Assembly: GCF_022808855.1 (NCBI RefSeq)
Contig: NZ_JAKZLF010000023.1
Coordinates: 5,632-69,631, forward strand
Reading direction: 5' to 3'
Origin: Anaeromyxobacter soli
GTDB lineage: Bacteria; Myxococcota; Myxococcia; Myxococcales; Anaeromyxobacteraceae
DNA length: 64,000 nucleotides
Shown here in pieces: positions 1-11,273 of the stretch (the stretch's first letter is position 1; each line of letters begins with the position of its first letter). A model generated the notes under the pieces. The model saw only the letters and a list, made by a program, of their open reading frames with translations, was not told the origin of the DNA and searched no databases. A program made the translations under genes and the position numbers.

Positions 1-1332
1 GGCGGGCGGGCCGCGGGTGCCGCGCCGGCGCCCGCCCCCCGCGGGGCCGCCCGCCTCGACCCCGCCCGCGTGCGGCGCGCGCGGCTCGTGGCGCTGTCGG
101 TCCCGATGCACACCGCGCTCGTGCTCGGCCTCAAGGCCGCGGCGCGGATCCGCGCCCTCGCCCCCGGCGCCGTCCTCTGCTTCCACGGGGTCTACGCGCC
201 CCTCAACGCCGACCTGCTCGTCGCCGCCGGCGCGGCGGCGGTGCTCGGCGGGGAGTCCGACGAGGAGCTCGTCTTGCTCGCGCGCGCGATCGAGCAGGGC
301 GCGCCGCTCGACCGGTTCGTGGAGCGCGGCGGCGCGGCGGCGCTCCGGCGCCGGCTCGACTACCCCGTCCCGAGCCGCGAGGGGCTCCCGCCACCCGAGC
401 GCTACGCGCGGCTCGCAGGGGCCGACGGCGCGCTCCGCCTCGCCGGCTACACGGAGGCGAGCCGCGGCTGCAAGCACCGCTGCCGGCACTGCCCGCTCCC
501 GGCCGTCTACGACGGGCGCTTCTTCGCGGTCCCCGTCGAGGCGGTCGTGGAGGACGTCGCCCGCCAGGTGGCGCAGGGCGTGGAGCACGTCACCTTCGGC
601 GATCCGGACTTCCTGAACGGCCCCGCGCACGCGCTCCGCGTCGCGAGCGCGATCCACGCCCGCTTCCCGGCGCTCACGTTCGACTTCACCGCCAAGGTCG
701 AGCACCTCCTCGGCGCGCCGGCCGCGCTCCGCGAGCTCGCCGGACACGGGGCGCTGTTCGTGACCTCCGCGGTCGAGTCGTTCTCCGACGAGGTCCTCTC
801 CAGGCTCGCGAAGGGCCACACCCGGGCCGACGCGCTCGCCGCGTTCGAGCTCGCGGCCGCGTCGGGCGTGCCGCTGCGCCCCTCGCTCCTCCCGTTCACC
901 CCCTGGGCGACGCTCGACGACTACCTGGAGCTCCTCGATCTCCTCGAGGCGCGCGGGTGGATGCAGAACCTCGACCCCGTCCAGCTCTCGATCCGGCTGC
1001 TCGTCCCGCCGGGCTCGCTGCTCGAGGGCGAGCCGAGCATCCCGTTCGACGGGCTCGACGCCGCGGGGCTCACCTGGCGCTGGCGCCACCCCGACCCGCG
1101 CATGGACTCGCTGCAGGCGCGGGTGGCGGCGGAGGTGGCGGCCGGGTCGACCTCGGGCGAGCCTCCCCTCGCGACGGTCGCCCGGGTGAAGGCGCTCGCG
1201 CTCGCCTCGGCCGGGCGACCCCATGGCCACGTCCGCGTGCTCGCCCCGGACCAGCGGCGGGTGCCGCGCCTCACCGAGTCCTGGTTCTGTTGAGCTGAGC
1301 CCACCGCGGGGCAGTTGGCTCCGCTCGAGTGA
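1..1332 (+). CDS. Radical SAM (seleno)protein with CUAEP tail, 5' end outside window
   Basis: The reading frame is open from base 1, so the N-terminus lies upstream. The visible part begins inside a B12-binding-like N-terminal domain (LDPARVRRARLVALSVPMHT). The radical SAM motif is C-x3-C-x2-C (CKHRCRHC), with cysteine codons at 469, 481 and 490, ligating the [4Fe-4S] cluster that cleaves S-adenosylmethionine. The frame meets TGA at 1291, directly after a TGT Cys codon. Reading TGA as selenocysteine gives C-U-A-E-P, then nine more residues and a stop at 1330-1332. This matches the radical SAM family I know as CUAEP/CCAEP-tail, whose members end in Cys-Sec/Cys-Ala-Glu-Pro, so I extend the gene past the TGA. 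The substrate is unknown. The chemistry at the tail (redox or metal binding by Cys-Sec) is inference. If TGA were a true stop, the protein would end at ...TESWFC and lack the family tail. Confidence 0.85.
1291..1326 (+). promoter_or_regulatory. UGA selenocysteine codon with SECIS-like hairpin
   Basis: TGA at 1291-1293 is followed at once by a possible stem-loop. GAGCC (1297-1301) pairs with GGCTC (1317-1321), extended after one mismatch by GC (1294-1295) with GC (1323-1324). The 15-base loop (1302-1316) is G-rich and carries a GU about 20 bases after the UGA. Position and shape suit a bacterial SECIS, which sits just 3' of the UGA and binds SelB. The fold is drawn by eye. Confidence 0.55.
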
Positions 1333-1673: not shown

Positions 1674-4586
1674 ATGGCCGAGCGCAAGGACATCCGCACG
1701 TTGCCCGGGCCGTACCGGCGGCTCCACGACATCCTCGCCGTGCACCTCCCCGGCGATCGGATCATCGCCGATCCGCTCCGTTGCCTCGCGTTCGGCACGG
1801 ACGCGAGCTTCTATCGGCTCATCCCGAAGCTCGTCGTGCAGCTCCGGTCCGCCGACGAGGTCGCCCGCCTCCTCTCCGAGACCGGCGCGCTCGGGCTGCC
1901 CGTGACCTTCCGCGCGGCGGGCACGAGCCTCTCGGGCCAGTCCATCTCCGACTCCGTGCTCGCGCTCGTCGCGGGGGGCTTCCGCGGCCTCTCCGTGCTG
2001 GACGGGGGCGCGCGCGTCGTCTGCGAGCCCGGCGTCATCGGCGCCGACGTGAACCTCGCGCTCGCGCCGTACGGGCGAAAGCTCGGCCCCGACCCCGCCT
2101 CGATCGGCGCGTGCATGGTGGGCGGCATCGCCGCGAACAACTCCTCCGGCATGTGCTGCGGGACGGCCCAGAACACCTACCGCACCGTGGAGAGCATGAA
2201 GGTGGTCCTGGCGGATGGGACCGCCCTCGACACCGCCGACCCCGAGTCGCGCGCGCGGCTCGCCCGTGCCCGCCCCGAGCTCGTGCGCGGCCTCGCGGAG
2301 ATCCGCGACGAGATCCGCGCCGACCCCGCGCTCCGCGCGCGCATCGCCGAGAAGTTCCGCATCAAGAACACGACCGGCTACGCGCTCAACGCGTTCGTGG
2401 ACTTCGAGGATCCGATCGACATCCTGCTGCACCTCCTCGTCGGCTCGGAGGGGACGCTCGCCTTCATCGCCGAGATCACCTACCGCACAGTCGAGGAGCA
2501 GCCGCACAAGGCCAGCGCGCTCGCCTTCTTCCCCGACATCGGCGAGGCCGCCCGCGCCACCCAGCTCCTCGCCGGCGGCCCGGTCGCTGCCGTCGAGCTC
2601 ATGGATCGCGCGTCCCTGCGCGCCGTGGAGGGGAAGCCGGGGATGCCGCCCGAGCTGCGCGGCCTCGTGGAGGGCGCCGCCGCCCTGCTCATCGAGACGC
2701 GCGCCGGCTCCGCCGCCGCGCTCGAGGAGCAGATCGCCGCGTGCCAGCTGCGGATGGCGCCCGTCCCGGCGCTCTACCCGGTGAGGTTCACGCCGGTGAA
2801 GGCGGAGTACGAGCGGCTCTGGGACGTGCGGCGCGGCCTCTTCCCCGCGGTCGGCGCGGCGCGGCGCGTCGGCACGACCGTCGTGATCGAGGACGTGGCG
2901 TTCCCGATCGCGCGCATGGCGGAGGGCACGCTCGACCTGCGGCGGCTGCTCGGGGAGCACGGCTACGGGGACGCGATCATCTTCGGGCATGCCCTCGACG
3001 GGAACCTGCACTTCGTCTTCACGCCCGACTTCGGGGACGTCGAGGAGGTGACGCGCTACGCGCGCTTCATGGACGACGTCTGCCAGATGGTCGCGAGGAA
3101 GTACGACGGCTCGCTGAAAGCGGAGCACGGGACGGGCCGCAACATCGCGCCGTACGTCGAGCTCGAGTGGGGCGCGAAGGCGTACGGGCTCATGCGGCGC
3201 GTGAAGGCCCTCTTCGACCCCGGGACGCTCCTCAACCCCGGCGTGATCATCAACGGCGACCCGGGCGCCCACCTGAAGGCGCTGAAGCCGCTGCCGCGCG
3301 CGCACCCGATCATCGACCGGTGCATCGAGTGCGGGTTCTGCGAGCCGCGCTGCCCGTCGCGCGAGCTCACGACGACGCCGCGGCAGCGCATCGTGGTCCA
3401 GCGCGAGATCGCGCGGCTGCGCGTCACCGCCGAGGACCCCGAGCGGCTGCGGCGCCTCGAGGCGGACTACGCCTACATGGGCGAGGAGACCTGCGCGACC
3501 GACGGCCTGTGCGCCACCGCCTGCCCCGTCGCGATCGACACCGGCGCGCACACGAAGTGGCTCCGGGCGCAGCGGCACGCCGAGGACGGCGCGGCGGCGA
3601 CCGCGGCCGCGGAGCACTTCGCGGTGGTGGGCTCGGTCGCGCGCGCGGCCCTCGGCGTCGCGAACGCGGCGCACGCGGTGCTCGGGACCACCGCGATGAG
3701 CGCCCTCGCGCGCGGGGCGCGGCGGGCGAGCCTGGGGAGGCTCCCGCTCTGGAGCACCGCGATGCCGCGGCCCGTCCGGCCGCGCCTCGCCCCCACCGCG
3801 ACCGGCGCCGACCTCCGCGTCGTCTACTTCCCGAGCTGCGTCGCCCGGACCATGGGGCCCGCGCGCGGCGACGAGGCCCCGCCGGTCTACGCCGCGCTCT
3901 CCTCGCTCCTCGCCAAGGCCCGCTGCGACGTGGTCTTCCCGGACCGGATGGAGGACCTCTGCTGCGGCATGCCCTTCGAGTCGAAGGGCTTCCCCGCCCA
4001 GGCGGAGCGGAAGGGCCGCGAGCTCGAGGCGGCGCTCCTGGCCGCGAGCGAGGGCGGCGAGCTCCCGATCCTCTTCGACACGAGCCCCTGCGCCTACCGG
4101 ATGAAGCACCTCGTCGCCGGATCGCTCGCCATCTTCGACCCGGTCGAGTTCATCGATCGCTTCCTCCTCCCCCGCCTCTCGCTCGCGCGCGAGCCCGGGC
4201 CCGTCGCGCTCCACGTCACGTGCAGCGCGGTCAAGGCGGGGCTCTCGGAGACCTACCGCCGCGTCGCCGCCGCGTGCGCGGAGCGGGTTGTGGTCCCCGC
4301 CGGCGTGGGGTGCTGCGGGTTCGCGGGAGATCGCGGCTTCACGCATCCGGAGCTGAACGCGTCCGCGCTCGCGGCGCTGCCCGCCGCGCTGCCCCCGGAG
4401 TGCCGGGCCGGGTACTCGTCCTCGCGCACCTGCGAGATCGGCCTCTCCGCGCACGCCGGCGTCCCCTACCGGTCGCTCGCCGTGCTCGTCGACCGCTGCG
4501 CGTCCACGCCGTCCGCGGCCCGACTCCCGGAGGCGCGCGGGCGCCTCGGCACCGCCGCCGCGCCGTCGGAGGAGACGCCCTCGTGA
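1674..4586 (+). CDS. dld: D-lactate dehydrogenase, FAD and Fe-S (Dld-II type)
   Basis: A 970-residue respiratory D-lactate dehydrogenase that should oxidise D-lactate to pyruvate and pass electrons to the quinone pool. The N-terminal half is a PCMH-type FAD-binding domain (RAAGTSLSGQS near residue 83) followed by the FAD-linked oxidase C domain (GHALDGNLHF near 440). The C-terminal half has a ferredoxin-type motif CIECGFCEPRCP starting at residue 550, a second cysteine cluster near 613 (LCATACP), and two CCG domains (CCGMPFES near 763, CCGFAGDRGF near 880). The size and order match Shewanella Dld-II rather than short GlcD-like enzymes. The frame is open upstream to an ATG at 1566, but homology begins near ATG 1674, which has a weak GGAG 11 bases upstream. 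It is the first gene of the lactate operon. Confidence 0.9.
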   Translation: MAERKDIRTLPGPYRRLHDILAVHLPGDRIIADPLRCLAFGTDASFYRLIPKLVVQLRSADEVARLLSETGALGLPVTFRAAGTSLSGQSISDSVLALVAGGFRGLSVLDGGARVVCEPGVIGADVNLALAPYGRKLGPDPASIGACMVGGIAANNSSGMCCGTAQNTYRTVESMKVVLADGTALDTADPESRARLARARPELVRGLAEIRDEIRADPALRARIAEKFRIKNTTGYALNAFVDFEDPIDILLHLLVGSEGTLAFIAEITYRTVEEQPHKASALAFFPDIGEAARATQLLAGGPVAAVELMDRASLRAVEGKPGMPPELRGLVEGAAALLIETRAGSAAALEEQIAACQLRMAPVPALYPVRFTPVKAEYERLWDVRRGLFPAVGAARRVGTTVVIEDVAFPIARMAEGTLDLRRLLGEHGYGDAIIFGHALDGNLHFVFTPDFGDVEEVTRYARFMDDVCQMVARKYDGSLKAEHGTGRNIAPYVELEWGAKAYGLMRRVKALFDPGTLLNPGVIINGDPGAHLKALKPLPRAHPIIDRCIECGFCEPRCPSRELTTTPRQRIVVQREIARLRVTAEDPERLRRLEADYAYMGEETCATDGLCATACPVAIDTGAHTKWLRAQRHAEDGAAATAAAEHFAVVGSVARAALGVANAAHAVLGTTAMSALARGARRASLGRLPLWSTAMPRPVRPRLAPTATGADLRVVYFPSCVARTMGPARGDEAPPVYAALSSLLAKARCDVVFPDRMEDLCCGMPFESKGFPAQAERKGRELEAALLAASEGGELPILFDTSPCAYRMKHLVAGSLAIFDPVEFIDRFLLPRLSLAREPGPVALHVTCSAVKAGLSETYRRVAAACAERVVVPAGVGCCGFAGDRGFTHPELNASALAALPAALPPECRAGYSSSRTCEIGLSAHAGVPYRSLAVLVDRCASTPSAARLPEARGRLGTAAAPSEETPS

Positions 4587-4701
4587 CCCCGTCCTCCACC
4601 ACGCCGCCCGGCGGCCTCGCGGCGGCCACCTCGATCGTCCCGGAGCTGCAAGCAGCCCTCGTCTGCACCCACCAGGCAGTCATCGCGCGGGAGGGAACCG
4701 C

Positions 4702-6522
4702 ATGTACCACCAGAACTACAATCCGCTGGGGAACGCCTTCCTTTCCACGCTCGTGGCGGCGATCCCCATCCTGACCCTGCTGTACTTCATCGCGCTCCAC
4801 CCGCACCGCGACGAGCTCGGGCGGCGCCACCTCGGCATCGCGGCGCCGTACGCCGCGCTCTACGGCGTCATCGCGGCCTTCCTCGTCTCGTGCCTCCCGT
4901 TCGGCATGCCGGTGACCTCGGCCGTCTCCGCGTTCGCGTACGGGTCGCTCTCGGGCTTCCTGGGGATCATCTGGATCGTGCTCGCGGCGATGTTCCTCTA
5001 CACGATGACGGTGATCACCGGGAAGTTCGAGATCGTGAAGGAGTCGATCATCCACATCTCGTTCGACCGCCGCCTCCAGGTGCTCCTCATCGCCTTCTCC
5101 TTCGGCGCGATCATCGAGGGCACCTCCGGCTTCGGCACCCCGGTCGCGATCGCGGGCGCCGTCATGGTCGGCCTCGGCTTCTCCCCCTTCCAGTCCGCGG
5201 TGCTGAACCTCCTCGCGAACACCGCCCCCGTGGCGTGGGGCGCGATCGGCACGCCGATCGTCACGCTCGCGGCGGTGAGCGGCCTCGATCAGGTGACGCT
5301 CTCGGCGATGGCCGGCCACCAGCTCCCCTTCGCGTCGCTGCTCGTCCCGTTCTGGCTCGTCGTCACCTTCGTCAAGATGGAGGGCGGCACGTGGAAGGAG
5401 GCCTTCGAGGTCTGGCCGGCGACGCTCGTCTCCGGCGCCTCGTTCGCGATCATGCAGTACTTCGCCTCCGGCACGAACTCCTTCCACCTCATGACCGACG
5501 TCGTCTCCGGCGTCTTCTCCGTCGTCTGCACCGCGCTCTTCCTGCGCTTCGTGTGGCACCCGAAGACGCGCTTCCTCCTGCGCTCCGAGCGCGAGGCGCG
5601 CGCCCGCGCCGCCGCGGCGAGCGTCGGGGCGGCCGGCCGCGACACGACCGACCACTCGTGGGAGTACCCCTACACGGTCCGTCAGACCGTCTACGCGTGG
5701 CTGCCGTGGGCGATCCTCATCGCCGCGTGCGCGCTCTGGGGCATGCCGTCGTTCAAGGCGTTCCTCAACAACCTCCTCGCCGACGCGAAGTTCTCGACGA
5801 CGCTCCTCGGGTCCAAGTTCAGCGGCACGCTCTCGCTCCCGGGCTGGGACATGCCCGCGCTCCACAACCTCGTGCAGCGCATGCCCCCCGTCGCCCTGCC
5901 GAACGCCAAGCCCGAGGCCGCGCGGTTCACCATCAACTGGCTCTCGGCCGCGGGCACCGGCGTGTTCGTCGCCGCCATCCTCTCCGGCCTCGCGCTCCGC
6001 ATGACCGCGGCCCAGTGGAAGGACGCCACGAGCCGGACCCTCCACCGCATGAAGATCCCGGTCCTCGTCATCGGGCAGGTGCTCGGGCTCGGCTACCTCA
6101 CGCGCTACTCGGGCACCGACGCGGTCCTCGGGCTCGCGTTCACGAAGGCGGGCTTCATGTACCCGTTCTTCGCCGCCTACCTCGGCTGGCTCGGCGTCTT
6201 CCTGACCGGCTCGGACACCGCCTCGAACGCGCTCTTCGGGAGCCTCCAGCGCATCACCGCCCAGCAGCTGAAGCTGAACGAGATCCTCATCGTGGCGACG
6301 AACTCGACGGGCGGCGTGATGGGCAAGATGATCGACGCGCAGTCGATCATGGTCGCGTGCGCCGCCTGCTACGAGAGCCCGAAGGAGCGGACGCACGCGC
6401 TCGGCCCGATCTTCCGCACCGTCTGGTGGCACTCGATCGCGCTCGCCGCGTTCATCGGGATCATCGCGATGCTGCAGGCCTACGTCTTCCCCGGGGTCAT
6501 CCCGGTGCCGCCGCCGAAGTGA
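4702..6522 (+). CDS. lldP: L-lactate permease
   Basis: A 606-residue inner-membrane lactate/proton symporter of the LctP family, with hydrophobic helices spread over the whole length (for example residues 12-32, 46-70 and 84-106). The family-typical GTSGFGTPVAIAG block lies near residue 140, in the conserved core, and the C-terminus ends in a further helix. The ATG at 4702 is preceded by GGGAGGG at good spacing. It lies between dld and the lutABC genes, so uptake and both oxidation routes are encoded together. The 115-base gap from dld shows no terminator. Confidence 0.93.
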   Translation: MYHQNYNPLGNAFLSTLVAAIPILTLLYFIALHPHRDELGRRHLGIAAPYAALYGVIAAFLVSCLPFGMPVTSAVSAFAYGSLSGFLGIIWIVLAAMFLYTMTVITGKFEIVKESIIHISFDRRLQVLLIAFSFGAIIEGTSGFGTPVAIAGAVMVGLGFSPFQSAVLNLLANTAPVAWGAIGTPIVTLAAVSGLDQVTLSAMAGHQLPFASLLVPFWLVVTFVKMEGGTWKEAFEVWPATLVSGASFAIMQYFASGTNSFHLMTDVVSGVFSVVCTALFLRFVWHPKTRFLLRSEREARARAAAASVGAAGRDTTDHSWEYPYTVRQTVYAWLPWAILIAACALWGMPSFKAFLNNLLADAKFSTTLLGSKFSGTLSLPGWDMPALHNLVQRMPPVALPNAKPEAARFTINWLSAAGTGVFVAAILSGLALRMTAAQWKDATSRTLHRMKIPVLVIGQVLGLGYLTRYSGTDAVLGLAFTKAGFMYPFFAAYLGWLGVFLTGSDTASNALFGSLQRITAQQLKLNEILIVATNSTGGVMGKMIDAQSIMVACAACYESPKERTHALGPIFRTVWWHSIALAAFIGIIAMLQAYVFPGVIPVPPPK

Positions 6523-6534
6523 CCCCCCACCGCC

Positions 6535-6558
6535 GAGGGGCGGCGCTCGCCGCCCCTC
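6535..6558 (+). other. Intercistronic hairpin between lldP and lutA
   Basis: GAGGGGCGGC (6535-6544) and GCCGCCCCTC (6549-6558) form a perfect 10-bp stem with a 4-base loop. It starts 13 bases after the lldP stop and ends 13 bases before the lutA start. No T-run follows, so it is more likely an mRNA stabiliser or attenuator than a strong terminator. Confidence 0.45.
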
Positions 6559-6571
6559 CGCCCGAGGCCAC

Positions 6572-7315
6572 GTGAAGGTCGCCCTCTTCATCCCCTGCTA
6601 CGTCGACCAGCTCTACCCGCAGGTCGGGCTCGCCACCGTGCGCGTGCTCGAGAAGCTCGGGGTGGACGTCGTCTACCCCGAGGAGCAGACCTGCTGCGGC
6701 CAGCCCATGGCGAACGCCGGCTTCGCCGCCGACGCGGCGCCGCTCGCGCGCCGCTTCCTCGAGGTGTTCGGCGGGTTCGAGCACGTCGTCTGCCCGTCCG
6801 GGAGCTGCGCGTCGATGGTGCGAAACCACTACGACGCGCTCGTCCCCGGCGCGCCCGGGCTCGAGGCCGTGAAGCGCGCGACCTACGAGCTCTGCGAGTT
6901 CATCACCGACGTGCTCGGGCTCGGGCGCATCGCCGGCCGGTACCCGCGCAAGGTCGGGCTGCACCAGAGCTGCCACGGCCTGCGTGAGCTCCGGCTCGGC
7001 AGCGCCAGCGAGCTGATGGAGGCGCGCTACAGCAAGGTCGCGAGCCTCCTCTCCTCGCTCGAGGGCATCGAGCTCGTGCCGCTCACGCGCGCCGACGAGT
7101 GCTGCGGGTTCGGGGGCACGTTCGCCGTCGTCGAGGAGGCGGTCTCCTGCATGATGGGGCGCGACCGGATCGCCGACCACGTGAGGGCGGGCGCCGAGAT
7201 CGTCACCGGCACCGACGTGTCCTGCCTGATGCACATGGATGGCCTCGCGCGGCGGGCGAAGGCGCCCCTCGCGTTCCGGCACGTCGCCGAGGTCCTCGCG
7301 GAGGCCATGCCATGA
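6572..7315 (+). CDS. lutA: L-lactate dehydrogenase complex subunit LutA/LldE
   Basis: A 247-residue cysteine-rich CCG-domain protein, one of three subunits of the NAD-independent L-lactate oxidising complex LutABC (LldEFG). Two CCG modules are visible: TCCGQPMANAGF near residue 45 and ECCGFGGTF near residue 175, each with upstream single cysteines (PCY at the N-terminus, HQSCHG near 135). These bind an Fe-S cluster in the related heterodisulfide reductase subunits. The start is GTG at 6572, because the family begins M-K-V-x-L-F-I-P-C. Its stop overlaps the lutB start by 4 bases (ATGA), which implies translational coupling. Confidence 0.93.
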   Translation: MKVALFIPCYVDQLYPQVGLATVRVLEKLGVDVVYPEEQTCCGQPMANAGFAADAAPLARRFLEVFGGFEHVVCPSGSCASMVRNHYDALVPGAPGLEAVKRATYELCEFITDVLGLGRIAGRYPRKVGLHQSCHGLRELRLGSASELMEARYSKVASLLSSLEGIELVPLTRADECCGFGGTFAVVEEAVSCMMGRDRIADHVRAGAEIVTGTDVSCLMHMDGLARRAKAPLAFRHVAEVLAEAMP

Positions 7316-8718
7316 GCGACTCGCTCCCGGTGCTCCGGTCGGGCGGGGCCGACCACGCGCAGCGCGCGGCCGCCTTCCTGCGGGACGAACCCCACGTCCA
7401 CTGGCACGACCAGGCGGTCTGGTTCGTGCGGGCGAAGCGCGACCGCGCCGCGTCGGCCGTGCCCGAGTGGGAGCGGCTCCGCGAGGTGGCCTCGCGCATC
7501 AAGGCGCACACCCAGTCGAGGCTCGCCGACTACCTCGAGGAGTTCGAGCGGAACGCCACGGCGGCGGGCGCGGTCGTCCACTGGGCGCGCGACGCCGACG
7601 AGCACAACGCGATCGTCCACCGCCTCCTCGCCGAGCGCGGCGTGACCCGCCTCGTGAAGTCGAAGTCGATGCTCACCGAGGAGTGCCACCTGAACCCGTA
7701 CCTCGAGGCCCGCGGGATCGAGGTGACGGACACGGATCTCGGCGAGCGCATCGTGCAGCTCGCGAAGGAGCCGCCGTCGCACATCGTGATGCCGGCGATC
7801 CACAAGAAGAAGGAGGAGATCGGGGAGCTGTTCCACGAGAAGATCGGCACGCCCGCGGGGCTCGCCGACCCGACCCGCCTCACCGAGGCCGCCCGCGGCC
7901 ACCTGCGCCAGCGGTTCATGGCGGCGCAGGCGGGGCTCACCGGCGTGAACTTCGCGGTGGCCGAGACGGGCGGGATCGTCGTCTGCACGAACGAGGGCAA
8001 CGCCGACATGGGCACCTCGCTCCCGCCCCTCCACATCGCGTCCATGGGCGTGGAGAAGGTCATCCCGCGGCTCGAGGACCTGGCCGTGTTCCTGCGGCTC
8101 CTCGCGCGGTCCGCGACCGGTCAGCCCTGCACCACCTACACCACCCATTTCCTCGGCCCGATGCGCGGCGGCGAGCTGCACGTCGTGGTCGTCGACAACG
8201 GGCGGAGCGCGCTCCTCGCCAGGGAGCAGTACCGCCGCGCGCTCCACTGCATCCGCTGCGCCGCGTGCATGAACACCTGCCCCGTGTACCGGCGGAGCGG
8301 TGGCTACAGCTACACGTACACGATCCCCGGGCCCATCGGGATCGTCCTCGCGAGCGCGCGCGGCGGCGACGCCCATGCGTCGCTCCCCTTCGCCTCCAGC
8401 CTCTGCGGCTCGTGCGACGACGTGTGCCCGGTGAAGATCCCGCTCCACGAGCAGATCCTCGGGAGCCGCCGCGATCTCGCCGAGCGCGGCGCACAGCCCG
8501 CCTCGAAGCGGCTCGGCATGCGGCTCGCCGCGTTCGTGCTGCGCACGAAGCTGGCCTACCTCGTCGCCGGCGCGGTGGCGCGCTTCCTCGGGCGACACCT
8601 GCCGCGCGGCGTCCTCTACGCCCGCTGGAACGTCTGGGGACGACAGCGCGAGCTGCCGCCGATGCCGGCGCAGAGCTTCCGGGAGCTCTACCGGAAGGAG
8701 CGGAGGCCGCGTGTCTAG
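7312..8718 (+). CDS. lutB: L-lactate dehydrogenase iron-sulfur subunit LutB/LldF
   Basis: A 468-residue LutB subunit. The N-terminal two thirds is the LUD domain shared with LutC. Ferredoxin-like clusters follow: [12 protein letters not shown] beginning at residue 313 and [13 protein letters not shown] beginning near residue 365. Together they should hold two [4Fe-4S] clusters that carry electrons from L-lactate oxidation toward the respiratory chain. The frame is open upstream, but the ATG at 7312 overlaps the lutA stop and starts the family homology. Its TAG stop overlaps the GTG start of lutC. Confidence 0.94.
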
Positions 8719-9301
8719 CCGGGAAGAGATCCTGCAGAGGCTGCGCGCGGCGGCGCCGCCGCCGGCGGAGCGCGCGGAGACGGGGGGCCTCGCCGCCCCC
8801 TTCGCCGACCGGCGCGCGCAGTTCGAGGCCGCGGTCGTCGCCGTCGCCGGCGCCGCGGTGCGGGTCGCGACCGGCGCGGCGCTCGCCGCGGAGGTGGCGG
8901 CGCTCGCGGAGCGGCTCGGCGCGAAGCGCGTCGCCTCGGCAGTGACGGACGCCGGTCCGGGGAACGTGGCGCTCGACGCGCTCGGCGATCCCCACGAGCT
9001 CGAGGGCATCGACCTGGCGGTGCTGCCGGGCGTCTTCGGGGTGGCCGAGAACGGCGCGGTGTGGGTGTCCGGCGCGTCGCTCCACGACCGCGCCGTGTTC
9101 GTGGTGACGCAGCACCTCGCGCTCGTCGTCCCCGCGGCGGAGATCGTGAACGACATGCACGAGGCCTGCGCGCGGGTGGCGGCGCTGCCGCGCGGCTACG
9201 GCCTCTTCATCGCCGGCCCGTCGAAGACCGCCGACATCGAGCAGGCGCTCGTCATCGGCGCGCACGGCGCCCGCTCCTGCACCGTGTTCGTCGTCGGCTG
9301 A
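8711..9301 (+). CDS. lutC: L-lactate utilization subunit LutC/LldG
   Basis: A 196-residue LUD-domain protein, the third LutABC subunit. It starts at GTG 8711, 8 bases inside the end of lutB, with the usual N-terminus [13 protein letters not shown]. The conserved C-terminal block includes [10 protein letters not shown] and a TQHLALVV strand. It is the last gene of the operon, and the next gene (9335-9913) converges on it after 33 bases. No terminator with a T-run is seen in that gap. Confidence 0.92.
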
Positions 9302-9998: not shown

Positions 9999-11273
9999 TC
10001 AGACGGTCGGCAGGGGCGCGCGGATGTCGAGCTCCAGCCGGCGATGCCCCTCGCGCAGCGCCGCCTCCACCGCGGCCGGCGACTCGGCCTTGGCGAAGAG
10101 GAAGCCCAGGTACGCCTCGCCCTCGGGCAACGGCACCACCTCGCGCCCCACCTCGGCCGTCACGACGAGGTCGACGACGTCCGGCACCGCCCTCGCCGCC
10201 TCCAGGCCGCGCACGGCGTGGAGGATCCCGCGCCGGGGGATGGGGATCATCATCACGCCCGAGGCGCGCTGCTCGCGCCGGATCGACTGGAGCGGCAGCC
10301 CCACCGCGTGGGCGACGAGGACCTCCTCGAGCGTCAGCCCGGCCCCGAAGCGGAGCGTGCGCGAGCAGAGCCCGCCGATCGAGCGCGCCGCGATCTCGAG
10401 GACCACCGGGCCGGCCGGGGAGAGCCGCAGCTCCGCGTGCACCGGGCCCTCGCGGAGCCCGAGCGCCCGCGCTCCGTCCGCGACGACCCGCTCCACCTCG
10501 CGCTGGAGCGCGGCCGGGTGACGCGACGGCGTGACGTACAGGGTCTCCTCGAAGTACGGGCCGTCGAGCGGATCCGGCTTGTCGAAGAGCGCGAGCACCT
10601 CGAGCGTCCCGCCGCGCAGGAGCCCCTCGAGCGCGACCTCCGCGCCGGGGACGAACGCCTCCACGAGCACCTCGTGCGCCTCGTCCTCGCCGCGCGGGCG
10701 CCGCTCCGCCTTCGTGTCGCGCAGGAGCCGTGCGATCCGCCGCCAGGCCGCCACGAACCCGGCCGCATCGTCGGCGCGGATGACCCCGCGACTCGCCGAG
10801 AAGATGAGCGGCTTCAGGACGCACGGGTACGGGCTCGACCGCGCCGCCGCCTCCGGATCACCGTCGAGGTCGTGCAGGGCGAACTCCGGCACGGGTACGC
10901 CCGCCGCCCTGAGCGCCGCTCGCATCGCGTGCTTGTTCGCCGCCCGCCGCGCGGCCTCCGGCGGGTTGTGGGGCAGCCCGAGCCGCTCCGCCGCCAGCGC
11001 GGCGATGACGGCGGTGGGATCGCTCGCCGGCACGATCCCGCGGATCGGCCGCCGCGCCGCCGCCTCGACGATCTGCTCGGCCGCCCGCTCCGGCCGGCGG
11101 TAATCGAGCGGGATGAGATCCGGCTGGGCGCCGAAGGCGTCCTCGATCCGGTGGCACAGATCGCTTCCGACGACGAGCGGCACGCCCAGCCGGCGCGCGG
11201 CGGCCTGGAAGTCGTCGAGCCGGTAGCTCGTGGTGGGCACCAGGAGGAGGAGCTCGCCCGCGGGGGTCTTCAT
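9999..11273 (-). CDS. ATP-grasp protein, L-amino-acid-ligase-like
   Basis: A 424-residue ATP-grasp enzyme. A Rossmann-like preATP-grasp domain (LLLLVPTTSYRLDDFQAAAR) covers about residues 1-100. The ATP-grasp fold follows, with NKHAMRAALRAAGVPVPEF near 115, PCVLKPLIFSASRGV near 150 as the ATP-binding lysine/loop region, a VEAFVPGAEVALEG strand near 205, and VVLEIAARSIGG near 285 carrying the Mg-binding Glu. The C-terminal about 100 residues (MIPIPRRGILHAVRG, then LPEGEAYLGFLFAKAES) resemble the C-terminal domain of L-amino acid ligases such as those making dipeptides or carnosine. This predicts ATP-driven joining of an amino acid to an amine or amino acid. The substrates are unknown. It lies downstream of the aromatic amino acid decarboxylase gene on the same strand. 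Confidence 0.75.
   Translation of the reverse strand: MKTPAGELLLLVPTTSYRLDDFQAAARRLGVPLVVGSDLCHRIEDAFGAQPDLIPLDYRRPERAAEQIVEAAARRPIRGIVPASDPTAVIAALAAERLGLPHNPPEAARRAANKHAMRAALRAAGVPVPEFALHDLDGDPEAAARSSPYPCVLKPLIFSASRGVIRADDAAGFVAAWRRIARLLRDTKAERRPRGEDEAHEVLVEAFVPGAEVALEGLLRGGTLEVLALFDKPDPLDGPYFEETLYVTPSRHPAALQREVERVVADGARALGLREGPVHAELRLSPAGPVVLEIAARSIGGLCSRTLRFGAGLTLEEVLVAHAVGLPLQSIRREQRASGVMMIPIPRRGILHAVRGLEAARAVPDVVDLVVTAEVGREVVPLPEGEAYLGFLFAKAESPAAVEAALREGHRRLELDIRAPLPTV

What the first reader, a model, noticed from the sequence alone, without database searches (positions are those of the whole stretch)
1291..1332. UGA read as selenocysteine: a C-U-A-E-P tail on a radical SAM protein
The frame of the radical SAM gene reaches TGA at 1291 straight after a Cys codon, and the next three codons read Ala-Glu-Pro in the same frame before a stop at 1330. 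That gives Cys-Sec-Ala-Glu-Pro, the tail that names the CUAEP/CCAEP radical SAM family. A gene caller that stops at TGA would cut the protein short and lose the part that defines it. The role of this Cys-Sec pair is, to my knowledge, not settled.
Basis: partly seen in the sequence, partly recalled or inferred. Interest (0 to 1): 0.85.

Follow-up and report, generated by a model that had tools for sequence, protein, structure and literature searches.

The report
Selenocysteine-tailed radical SAM enzyme gene
An apparent stop codon near the end of this bacterial enzyme gene really codes for the rare amino acid selenocysteine, completing a conserved Cys-Sec tail that marks an already named enzyme family whose job is still unknown.

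Summary
In an Anaeromyxobacter-type genome, the radical SAM frame reaches TGA at 1291-1293 right after a Cys codon and goes on as Ala-Glu-Pro-Thr-Ala-Gly-Gln-Leu-Ala-Pro-Leu-Glu to a stop at 1330-1332.

Four lines say the UGA is selenocysteine:
- In 97 distinct homologue tails this codon is TGA 82 times, TGC/TGT 15 times, never TAA or TAG.
- UGA forms carry a SECIS-like hairpin at a fixed distance (77 of 81; Cys forms 0 of 14); here 1306-1324.
- The genome has selA, selB, selD and tRNA-Sec.
- SelB passes its cut-off in 22 of 23 genomes with UGA but 3 of 15 with Cys.

The protein scores 579.9 bits against NCBIfam NF040546 (cut-off 500), "CUAEP/CCAEP-tail radical SAM (seleno)protein". So family and tail are already named; the function is not known.

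New here: the closest characterised relative is ArsL (arsinothricin synthesis), which also ends in adjacent cysteines. The gene travels with an L-amino-acid-ligase-like ATP-grasp gene (here 9999-11273) and, in other phyla, with Fe-S carrier genes. I favour, at about 40%, an enzyme whose Cys-Sec tail holds a soft atom that receives a SAM-derived group.

The parts
1..1332 (+). Radical SAM (seleno)protein gene, CUAEP/CCAEP-tail family NF040546; 5' part lies upstream of the window (start about 212 bases before position 1)
   Evidence: NF040546 579.9 bits, cut-off 500, profile 24-467/468; Pfam Radical_SAM 60.6 bits
469..492 (+). Codons of the CX3CX2C [4Fe-4S] motif (C-KHR-C-RH-C)
   Evidence: sequence; these Cys invariant in 78 of 78 relatives
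1288..1293 (+). Cys codon TGT followed by UGA = selenocysteine codon
1294..1329 (+). Tail after Sec: AEPTAGQLAPLE
   Evidence: A-E-P(-T) conserved in 97 distinct homologue tails
1306..1324 (+). SECIS-like hairpin: arms 1306-1312 (GCGGGGC) and 1318-1324 (GCTCCGC), loop 1313-1317 (AGTTG); 7 of 7 pairs, one of them G-U
   Evidence: 77 of 81 UGA forms keep at least 6 of 7 pairs at this offset, 0 of 14 Cys forms
1330..1332 (+). True stop codon (also TGA)
9999..11273 (-). L-amino-acid-ligase-like ATP-grasp gene, convergent with the radical SAM gene; orthologue of the ATP-grasp gene that lies next to it in relatives
   Evidence: only match in the genome, 54% identity to the neighbour of the G005 radical SAM gene; ORF; NCBIfam hits to ATP-grasp ligases

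Best explanation
(1) Shown by comparison, not by protein chemistry: UGA 1291-1293 is decoded as selenocysteine by SelB and tRNA-Sec, directed by the hairpin at 1306-1324. This gives a radical SAM protein with an invariant ...WF-Cys-Sec-Ala-Glu-Pro-Thr tail on a variable linker. (2) Inferred: the enzyme works like ArsL. The CX3CX2C [4Fe-4S] cluster cleaves SAM to a radical. The adjacent Cys-Sec pair on the mobile C-terminal arm holds a soft atom or substrate (most simply a metalloid such as As(III), possibly a chalcogen or metal) at the active site, where it receives a SAM-derived group, probably 3-amino-3-carboxypropyl. The product would be an unusual amino acid that the linked ATP-grasp ligase joins to another amino acid. 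Fe-S carriers (NfuA-like, A-type) encoded next to it in other phyla would keep its cluster supplied. Step 1 is about 0.98 likely; step 2 about 0.4.
For: Sec: 82 TGA, 15 Cys codons, no TAA/TAG among 97 distinct tails. Hairpin in 77 of 81 UGA forms and 0 of 14 Cys forms; sliding it to other offsets gives 47 of 81 at the next base and under 20 elsewhere. selB, selA, selD and tRNA-Sec in the genome. SelB over cut-off in 22 of 23 UGA genomes against 3 of 15 Cys genomes, Fisher p = 2e-6. At least 5 changes between Sec and Cys on the tree (shuffled labels: 10 or more). Mechanism: the second-best family is ArsL, 233.5 bits; ArsL/RCCLKC relatives are 29-36% identical in the plasmid search and end in R-C-C-L-K-C. 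Only five Cys/Sec positions are invariant in the family: the three cluster Cys and the Cys-Cys/Sec pair. ATP-grasp genes near 36 of the relatives' genes and also in RCCLKC clusters; nearest solved structure of the ATP-grasp is L-amino acid ligase BL00235. NfuA-like or A-type carrier genes near 37. ArsL's 3-amino-3-carboxypropyl transfer to arsenite is proposed in PMC8552651 and cited as established in PMC12159101.
Against: No arsenic genes (ArsM, ArsN, ArsR, ArsQ, ArsB, aquaporin) of the arsinothricin type lie near the CUAEP genes; only two weak ArsM-like hits. The two kinds of ATP-grasp are only distant relatives, 23% identity. The protein is well under the ArsL cut-off. The fold matches many B12-type and MiaB-type radical SAM enzymes, so it does not single out this chemistry. 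Taken alone, the window's hairpin region is no more stable than shuffled sequence (z -0.81). One UGA genome, a draft, shows no SelB over the cut-off.
Confidence: 0.4

Rival explanations
1. The Sec (or Cys) of the tail is the redox partner of ordinary radical chemistry: it gives a hydrogen atom or electrons to a substrate radical made by the 5'-deoxyadenosyl radical, the tail being re-reduced after forming a Cys-Sec bond. The enzyme would be an epimerase-, dehydratase- or reductase-like radical SAM enzyme.
For: An adjacent Cys-Sec pair on a variable linker is a classic mobile redox arm (own knowledge). The best structural match is the radical SAM dehydratase AprD4, Z 27.0. Sec and Cys interchange at least 5 times on the tree, as is usual for redox Sec.
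Against: ArsL, the closest characterised family, has the adjacent Cys pair but does group transfer to arsenic; no redox partner protein is consistently encoded nearby.
Confidence: 0.27
3. The UGA is an ordinary stop and the downstream reading is chance or a relic; the enzyme ends in ...WFC.
For: Gene callers end it there, e.g. the T. roseum CDS; the window's hairpin alone is not unusually stable.
Against: Never TAA/TAG in 97 tails, Cys codon and the same A-E-P-T continuation in relatives, fixed hairpin only in UGA forms, SelB co-occurrence.
Confidence: 0.02

Closest known systems
NCBIfam NF040546 rSAM_CUAEP, 'CUAEP/CCAEP-tail radical SAM (seleno)protein'
   Same: Match over the curated cut-off, including the C-U-A-E-P tail; RefSeq uses the name on Thermomicrobium roseum
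   Different: Nothing of substance; this is a member. The window's copy has a scaffold gap and extra G/C-rich sequence in its N-terminal part, upstream of the window
ArsL / RCCLKC-tail radical SAM protein (NF040542), arsinothricin synthesis
   Same: Related over almost the whole length (233.5 bits; 29-36% identity), same CX3CX2C motif, C-terminus with two adjacent Cys, ATP-grasp gene in several of its clusters
   Different: Under the ArsL cut-off of 450; ArsL ends in R-C-C-L-K-C, this in W-F-C-U-A-E-P-T plus extension; arsenic genes around ArsL but not around CUAEP genes; separate clade with full support
Other radical SAM selenoproteins (TIGR04167 'GxxU' protein; TrsS NF045646) listed in PMC13188914
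   Same: Radical SAM proteins with Sec
   Different: Different families and Sec motifs; neither is among the NCBIfam matches of this protein
AprD4, OxsB, TsrM, MgmA (B12-type radical SAM fold)
   Same: Whole-length fold match, Z 24-27
   Different: 17-19% identity, different tails and known reactions

Membership tests
Bacterial selenoprotein (UGA read as Sec) | In-frame UGA aligned with Cys in homologues | tested here: met
   82 TGA against 15 TGC/TGT, no other codon
Bacterial selenoprotein (UGA read as Sec) | SECIS-type stem-loop just downstream of UGA | tested here: met
   77 of 81 UGA forms, 0 of 14 Cys forms; window 1306-1324 pairs 7 of 7
Bacterial selenoprotein (UGA read as Sec) | selA, selB, selD and tRNA-Sec in the genome | tested here: met
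   selB 306.9 bits, selA 537.8, selD 392.9, tRNA-Sec 75.4 with anticodon TCA
Bacterial selenoprotein (UGA read as Sec) | Sec present in the protein | not testable with these tools
   needs mass spectrometry or 75Se labelling
NF040546 CUAEP/CCAEP-tail radical SAM | Score over the curated cut-off of 500 bits | tested here: met
   579.9 bits although the N-terminus is missing from the window
NF040546 CUAEP/CCAEP-tail radical SAM | Tail C-U/C-A-E-P | tested here: met
NF040546 CUAEP/CCAEP-tail radical SAM | CX3CX2C radical SAM motif | tested here: met
   window 469-492; invariant in 78 relatives
ArsL (NF040542) | Score over the curated cut-off of 450 bits | tested here: not met
   233.5 bits
ArsL (NF040542) | C-terminal R-C-C-L-K-C | tested here: not met
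   tail is W-F-C-U-A-E-P; RCCLKC seen in the true members
ArsL (NF040542) | Arsenic genes alongside (arsM, arsQ, arsN, arsR) | tested here: not met
   none found near CUAEP genes apart from two weak ArsM-like hits
ArsL (NF040542) | Transfer of 3-amino-3-carboxypropyl to As(III) | not testable with these tools
   needs an enzyme assay

The most novel reading that the evidence does not exclude
CUAEP enzymes are a widespread selenium-dependent branch of ArsL-type chemistry: the Cys-Sec arm binds a metalloid or chalcogen and a SAM-derived 3-amino-3-carboxypropyl group is attached to it, making an unknown heteroatom amino acid that the linked ATP-grasp ligase builds into a dipeptide. The relatives used here come from Myxococcota, Rokubacteria, Planctomycetota, Nitrospirota, Nitrospinota, Chloroflexota, Acidobacteriota and others.
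Probability: 0.25. Interest if true: 0.8.

Novelty: new member of a known kind. Interest (0 to 1): 0.42.

Why it matters
The recoding is a clear example of a gene cut short by annotation: the part that is lost is among the most conserved parts of the protein. The family is spread over many phyla, with Cys-Sec or Cys-Cys at the same place in every complete copy read here, yet no paper found here treats it. Its kinship to ArsL and its link with an amino-acid ligase and Fe-S carriers give a concrete guess about the reaction, which can be tested in a natural Cys-Cys variant without having to make a selenoprotein.

Tried and rejected
Ordinary stop codon: rejected. Gathering-level Rfam search of the 12 kb locus: no match, so the hairpin reaches no Rfam family at that threshold. 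Folding the window's hairpin alone: no signal (z -0.81); only the comparison across relatives shows it. Arsenic resistance cluster around the gene: not found. Lactate utilisation genes downstream (1674-9301) as functional partners: rejected as a general rule, because the neighbour clusters found across phyla do not include them and in G015 and G013 the ATP-grasp gene lies 1-2 kb from the radical SAM gene. Common origin of the ATP-grasp genes of ArsL and CUAEP clusters: not supported, 23% identity. Position of the tail relative to the Fe-S site in the AlphaFold model (mean pLDDT 93.3, linker and tail about 55-78): could not be measured, coordinates are not given. The Haft papers on selenoprotein families are not held.

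Full report
What is there. In frame 1 the window reads ...S-W-F-C (TGT 1288-1290), TGA (1291-1293), then A-E-P-T-A-G-Q-L-A-P-L-E and TGA at 1330-1332. The gene begins upstream of the window, near C16:5419 of the assembly. The genome (5.3 Mb, 80 contigs) belongs with Anaeromyxobacter: the closest relative fetched is A. terrae, 89% identical over the protein.

Family. With TGA read through, NCBIfam NF040546 'CUAEP/CCAEP-tail radical SAM (seleno)protein' scores 579.9 bits against a cut-off of 500, aligned to position 467 of 468; the next family is ArsL, 233.5 bits against a cut-off of 450. Pfam sees only Radical_SAM. So both the protein and the meaning of its tail are already named by NCBI curators. 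I found no paper with the family's name or number in the library, and a 2026 review of prokaryotic selenoproteins (PMC13188914) gave no hit for this name or for accessions beginning NF0405 in its text.

Is the UGA selenocysteine? Four tests agree. (a) Codon: among 97 distinct homologue tails the site is TGA in 82, TGC in 10, TGT in 5 and TAA/TAG in none; the following A-E-P is nearly invariant while its third codon bases vary. (b) Hairpin: a 7-pair stem beginning 15 bases after the first base of UGA, with loop AGTT(N) or AGGT(N), keeps at least 6 pairs in 77 of 81 UGA forms and in none of 14 Cys forms; the adjacent base gives 47 of 81 and all other slid positions fewer than 20. Several pairs change on both sides between relatives, for instance G-C, C-G and A-T at pairs 2 to 5. 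In the window it is 1306-1324. The window's sequence folded alone shows no unusual stability, so this evidence rests on the comparison. (c) Machinery: selB 306.9 bits, selA 537.8, selD 392.9 (itself with an in-frame TGA) and tRNA-Sec with anticodon TCA. (d) Co-occurrence: SelB passes its cut-off in 22 of 23 genomes with a UGA form and in 3 of 15 with a Cys form, Fisher p = 2e-6; relatedness of the genomes is not corrected for. A relative in the same order, G008, has Cys at the site and no SelB over the cut-off, while other genera of its family have UGA and SelB. The tree needs at least 5 changes between Sec and Cys (shuffles: 10 or more); it is the quick version of the tree. The sample is the nearest 80 relatives plus the class, so the ratio of Sec to Cys forms is not that of the whole family.

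Anatomy. In 78 relatives only five Cys positions are invariant: the CX3CX2C motif and the tail Cys-Cys/Sec. The tail (P-x-L-T/S-E-x-W-F-C-U/C-A-E-P-T) follows a linker of variable sequence. The AlphaFold model is confident (mean pLDDT 93.3) except for linker and tail. It matches AprD4 (Z 27.0), MgmA, OxsB, TsrM and MiaB over most of its length, i.e. a B12-type radical SAM architecture.

Neighbours. Clustering of open frames around the relatives' genes gave recurrent partners. An ATP-grasp protein lies near 36 genes; the one tested has the L-amino acid ligase C-terminal domain and is nearest to the solved ligase BL00235. Small Fe-S carriers lie near 37: a NifU-domain, NfuA-like protein downstream, or upstream an A-type carrier, judged from its Cys signature (own reading of the sequence, not run against profiles). 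DUF169 lies near 13, YggX upstream in 27 (mostly Myxococcota), and SufU- and SufT-like genes upstream in 5. These counts include related genomes. In the window's genome the ATP-grasp orthologue is the only one, at window 9999-11273 on the minus strand, separated from the radical SAM gene by lactate-utilisation genes; in other Anaeromyxobacter genomes it lies about 1 to 14 kb away.

Kinship with ArsL. ArsL and RCCLKC-tail proteins found on plasmids are 29-36% identical and end in K-R-C-C-L-K-C. Among the four clusters inspected, all hold some arsenic or arsinothricin genes (arsR, arsM or arsN1), and three hold an ATP-grasp gene. PMC8552651 shows that ArsL is needed and enough to make hydroxyarsinothricin from arsenite in E. 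coli and proposes transfer of 3-amino-3-carboxypropyl; PMC12159101 cites later work for this radical transfer. CUAEP genes have no such arsenic neighbours, and the two kinds of ATP-grasp are only distantly alike. So it is not ArsL; that it works like ArsL, with the Cys-Sec arm holding a soft atom, is my preferred inference at about 0.4, ahead of a redox or hydrogen-donor role (0.27) and an auxiliary-cluster role (0.2).

Verdict. Observation and interpretation are right; the feature is a clean member of a known, named family of open function.

Noticed in passing
L009:5560-5640 (contig C16, just before window position 1): A scaffold gap of 10 N flanked by long G/C homopolymers lies inside the radical SAM gene, where relatives have a short ordinary sequence; probably an assembly fault.
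   Followed up: partly
window 1674-9301: D-lactate/glycolate-type FAD oxidase with Fe-S domains, L-lactate permease, and LutA-, LutB- and LutC-like genes stand between the radical SAM gene and its ATP-grasp partner, as if inserted into the old neighbourhood.
   Followed up: partly
L142:5944-7380 (Thermomicrobium roseum plasmid NC_011961.1): The RefSeq CDS carries the name CUAEP/CCAEP-tail but ends at the Sec UGA, with GCG GAG CCG following: annotation cut short at Sec.
   Followed up: yes
L129 (G000:C44:22034-22960): The genome's selD itself has an in-frame TGA, so selenophosphate synthetase is probably a selenoprotein too.
   Followed up: no
L144:5458-6774, L145:191-1414, L146:1-1227: Arsinothricin-type clusters on Pantoea, Priestia and Alicyclobacillus plasmids carry an ATP-grasp gene, hinting that the arsenic amino acid may be built into a peptide.
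   Followed up: partly
L011 and L017 tails: A few UGA forms (G018, G022) have longer tails in which the hairpin does not pair at the usual offset; a shifted SECIS is likely.
   Followed up: no
L115 (KSB1) genome G176: UGA form in a draft genome with no SelB over the cut-off; draft incompleteness or a recent loss.
   Followed up: no
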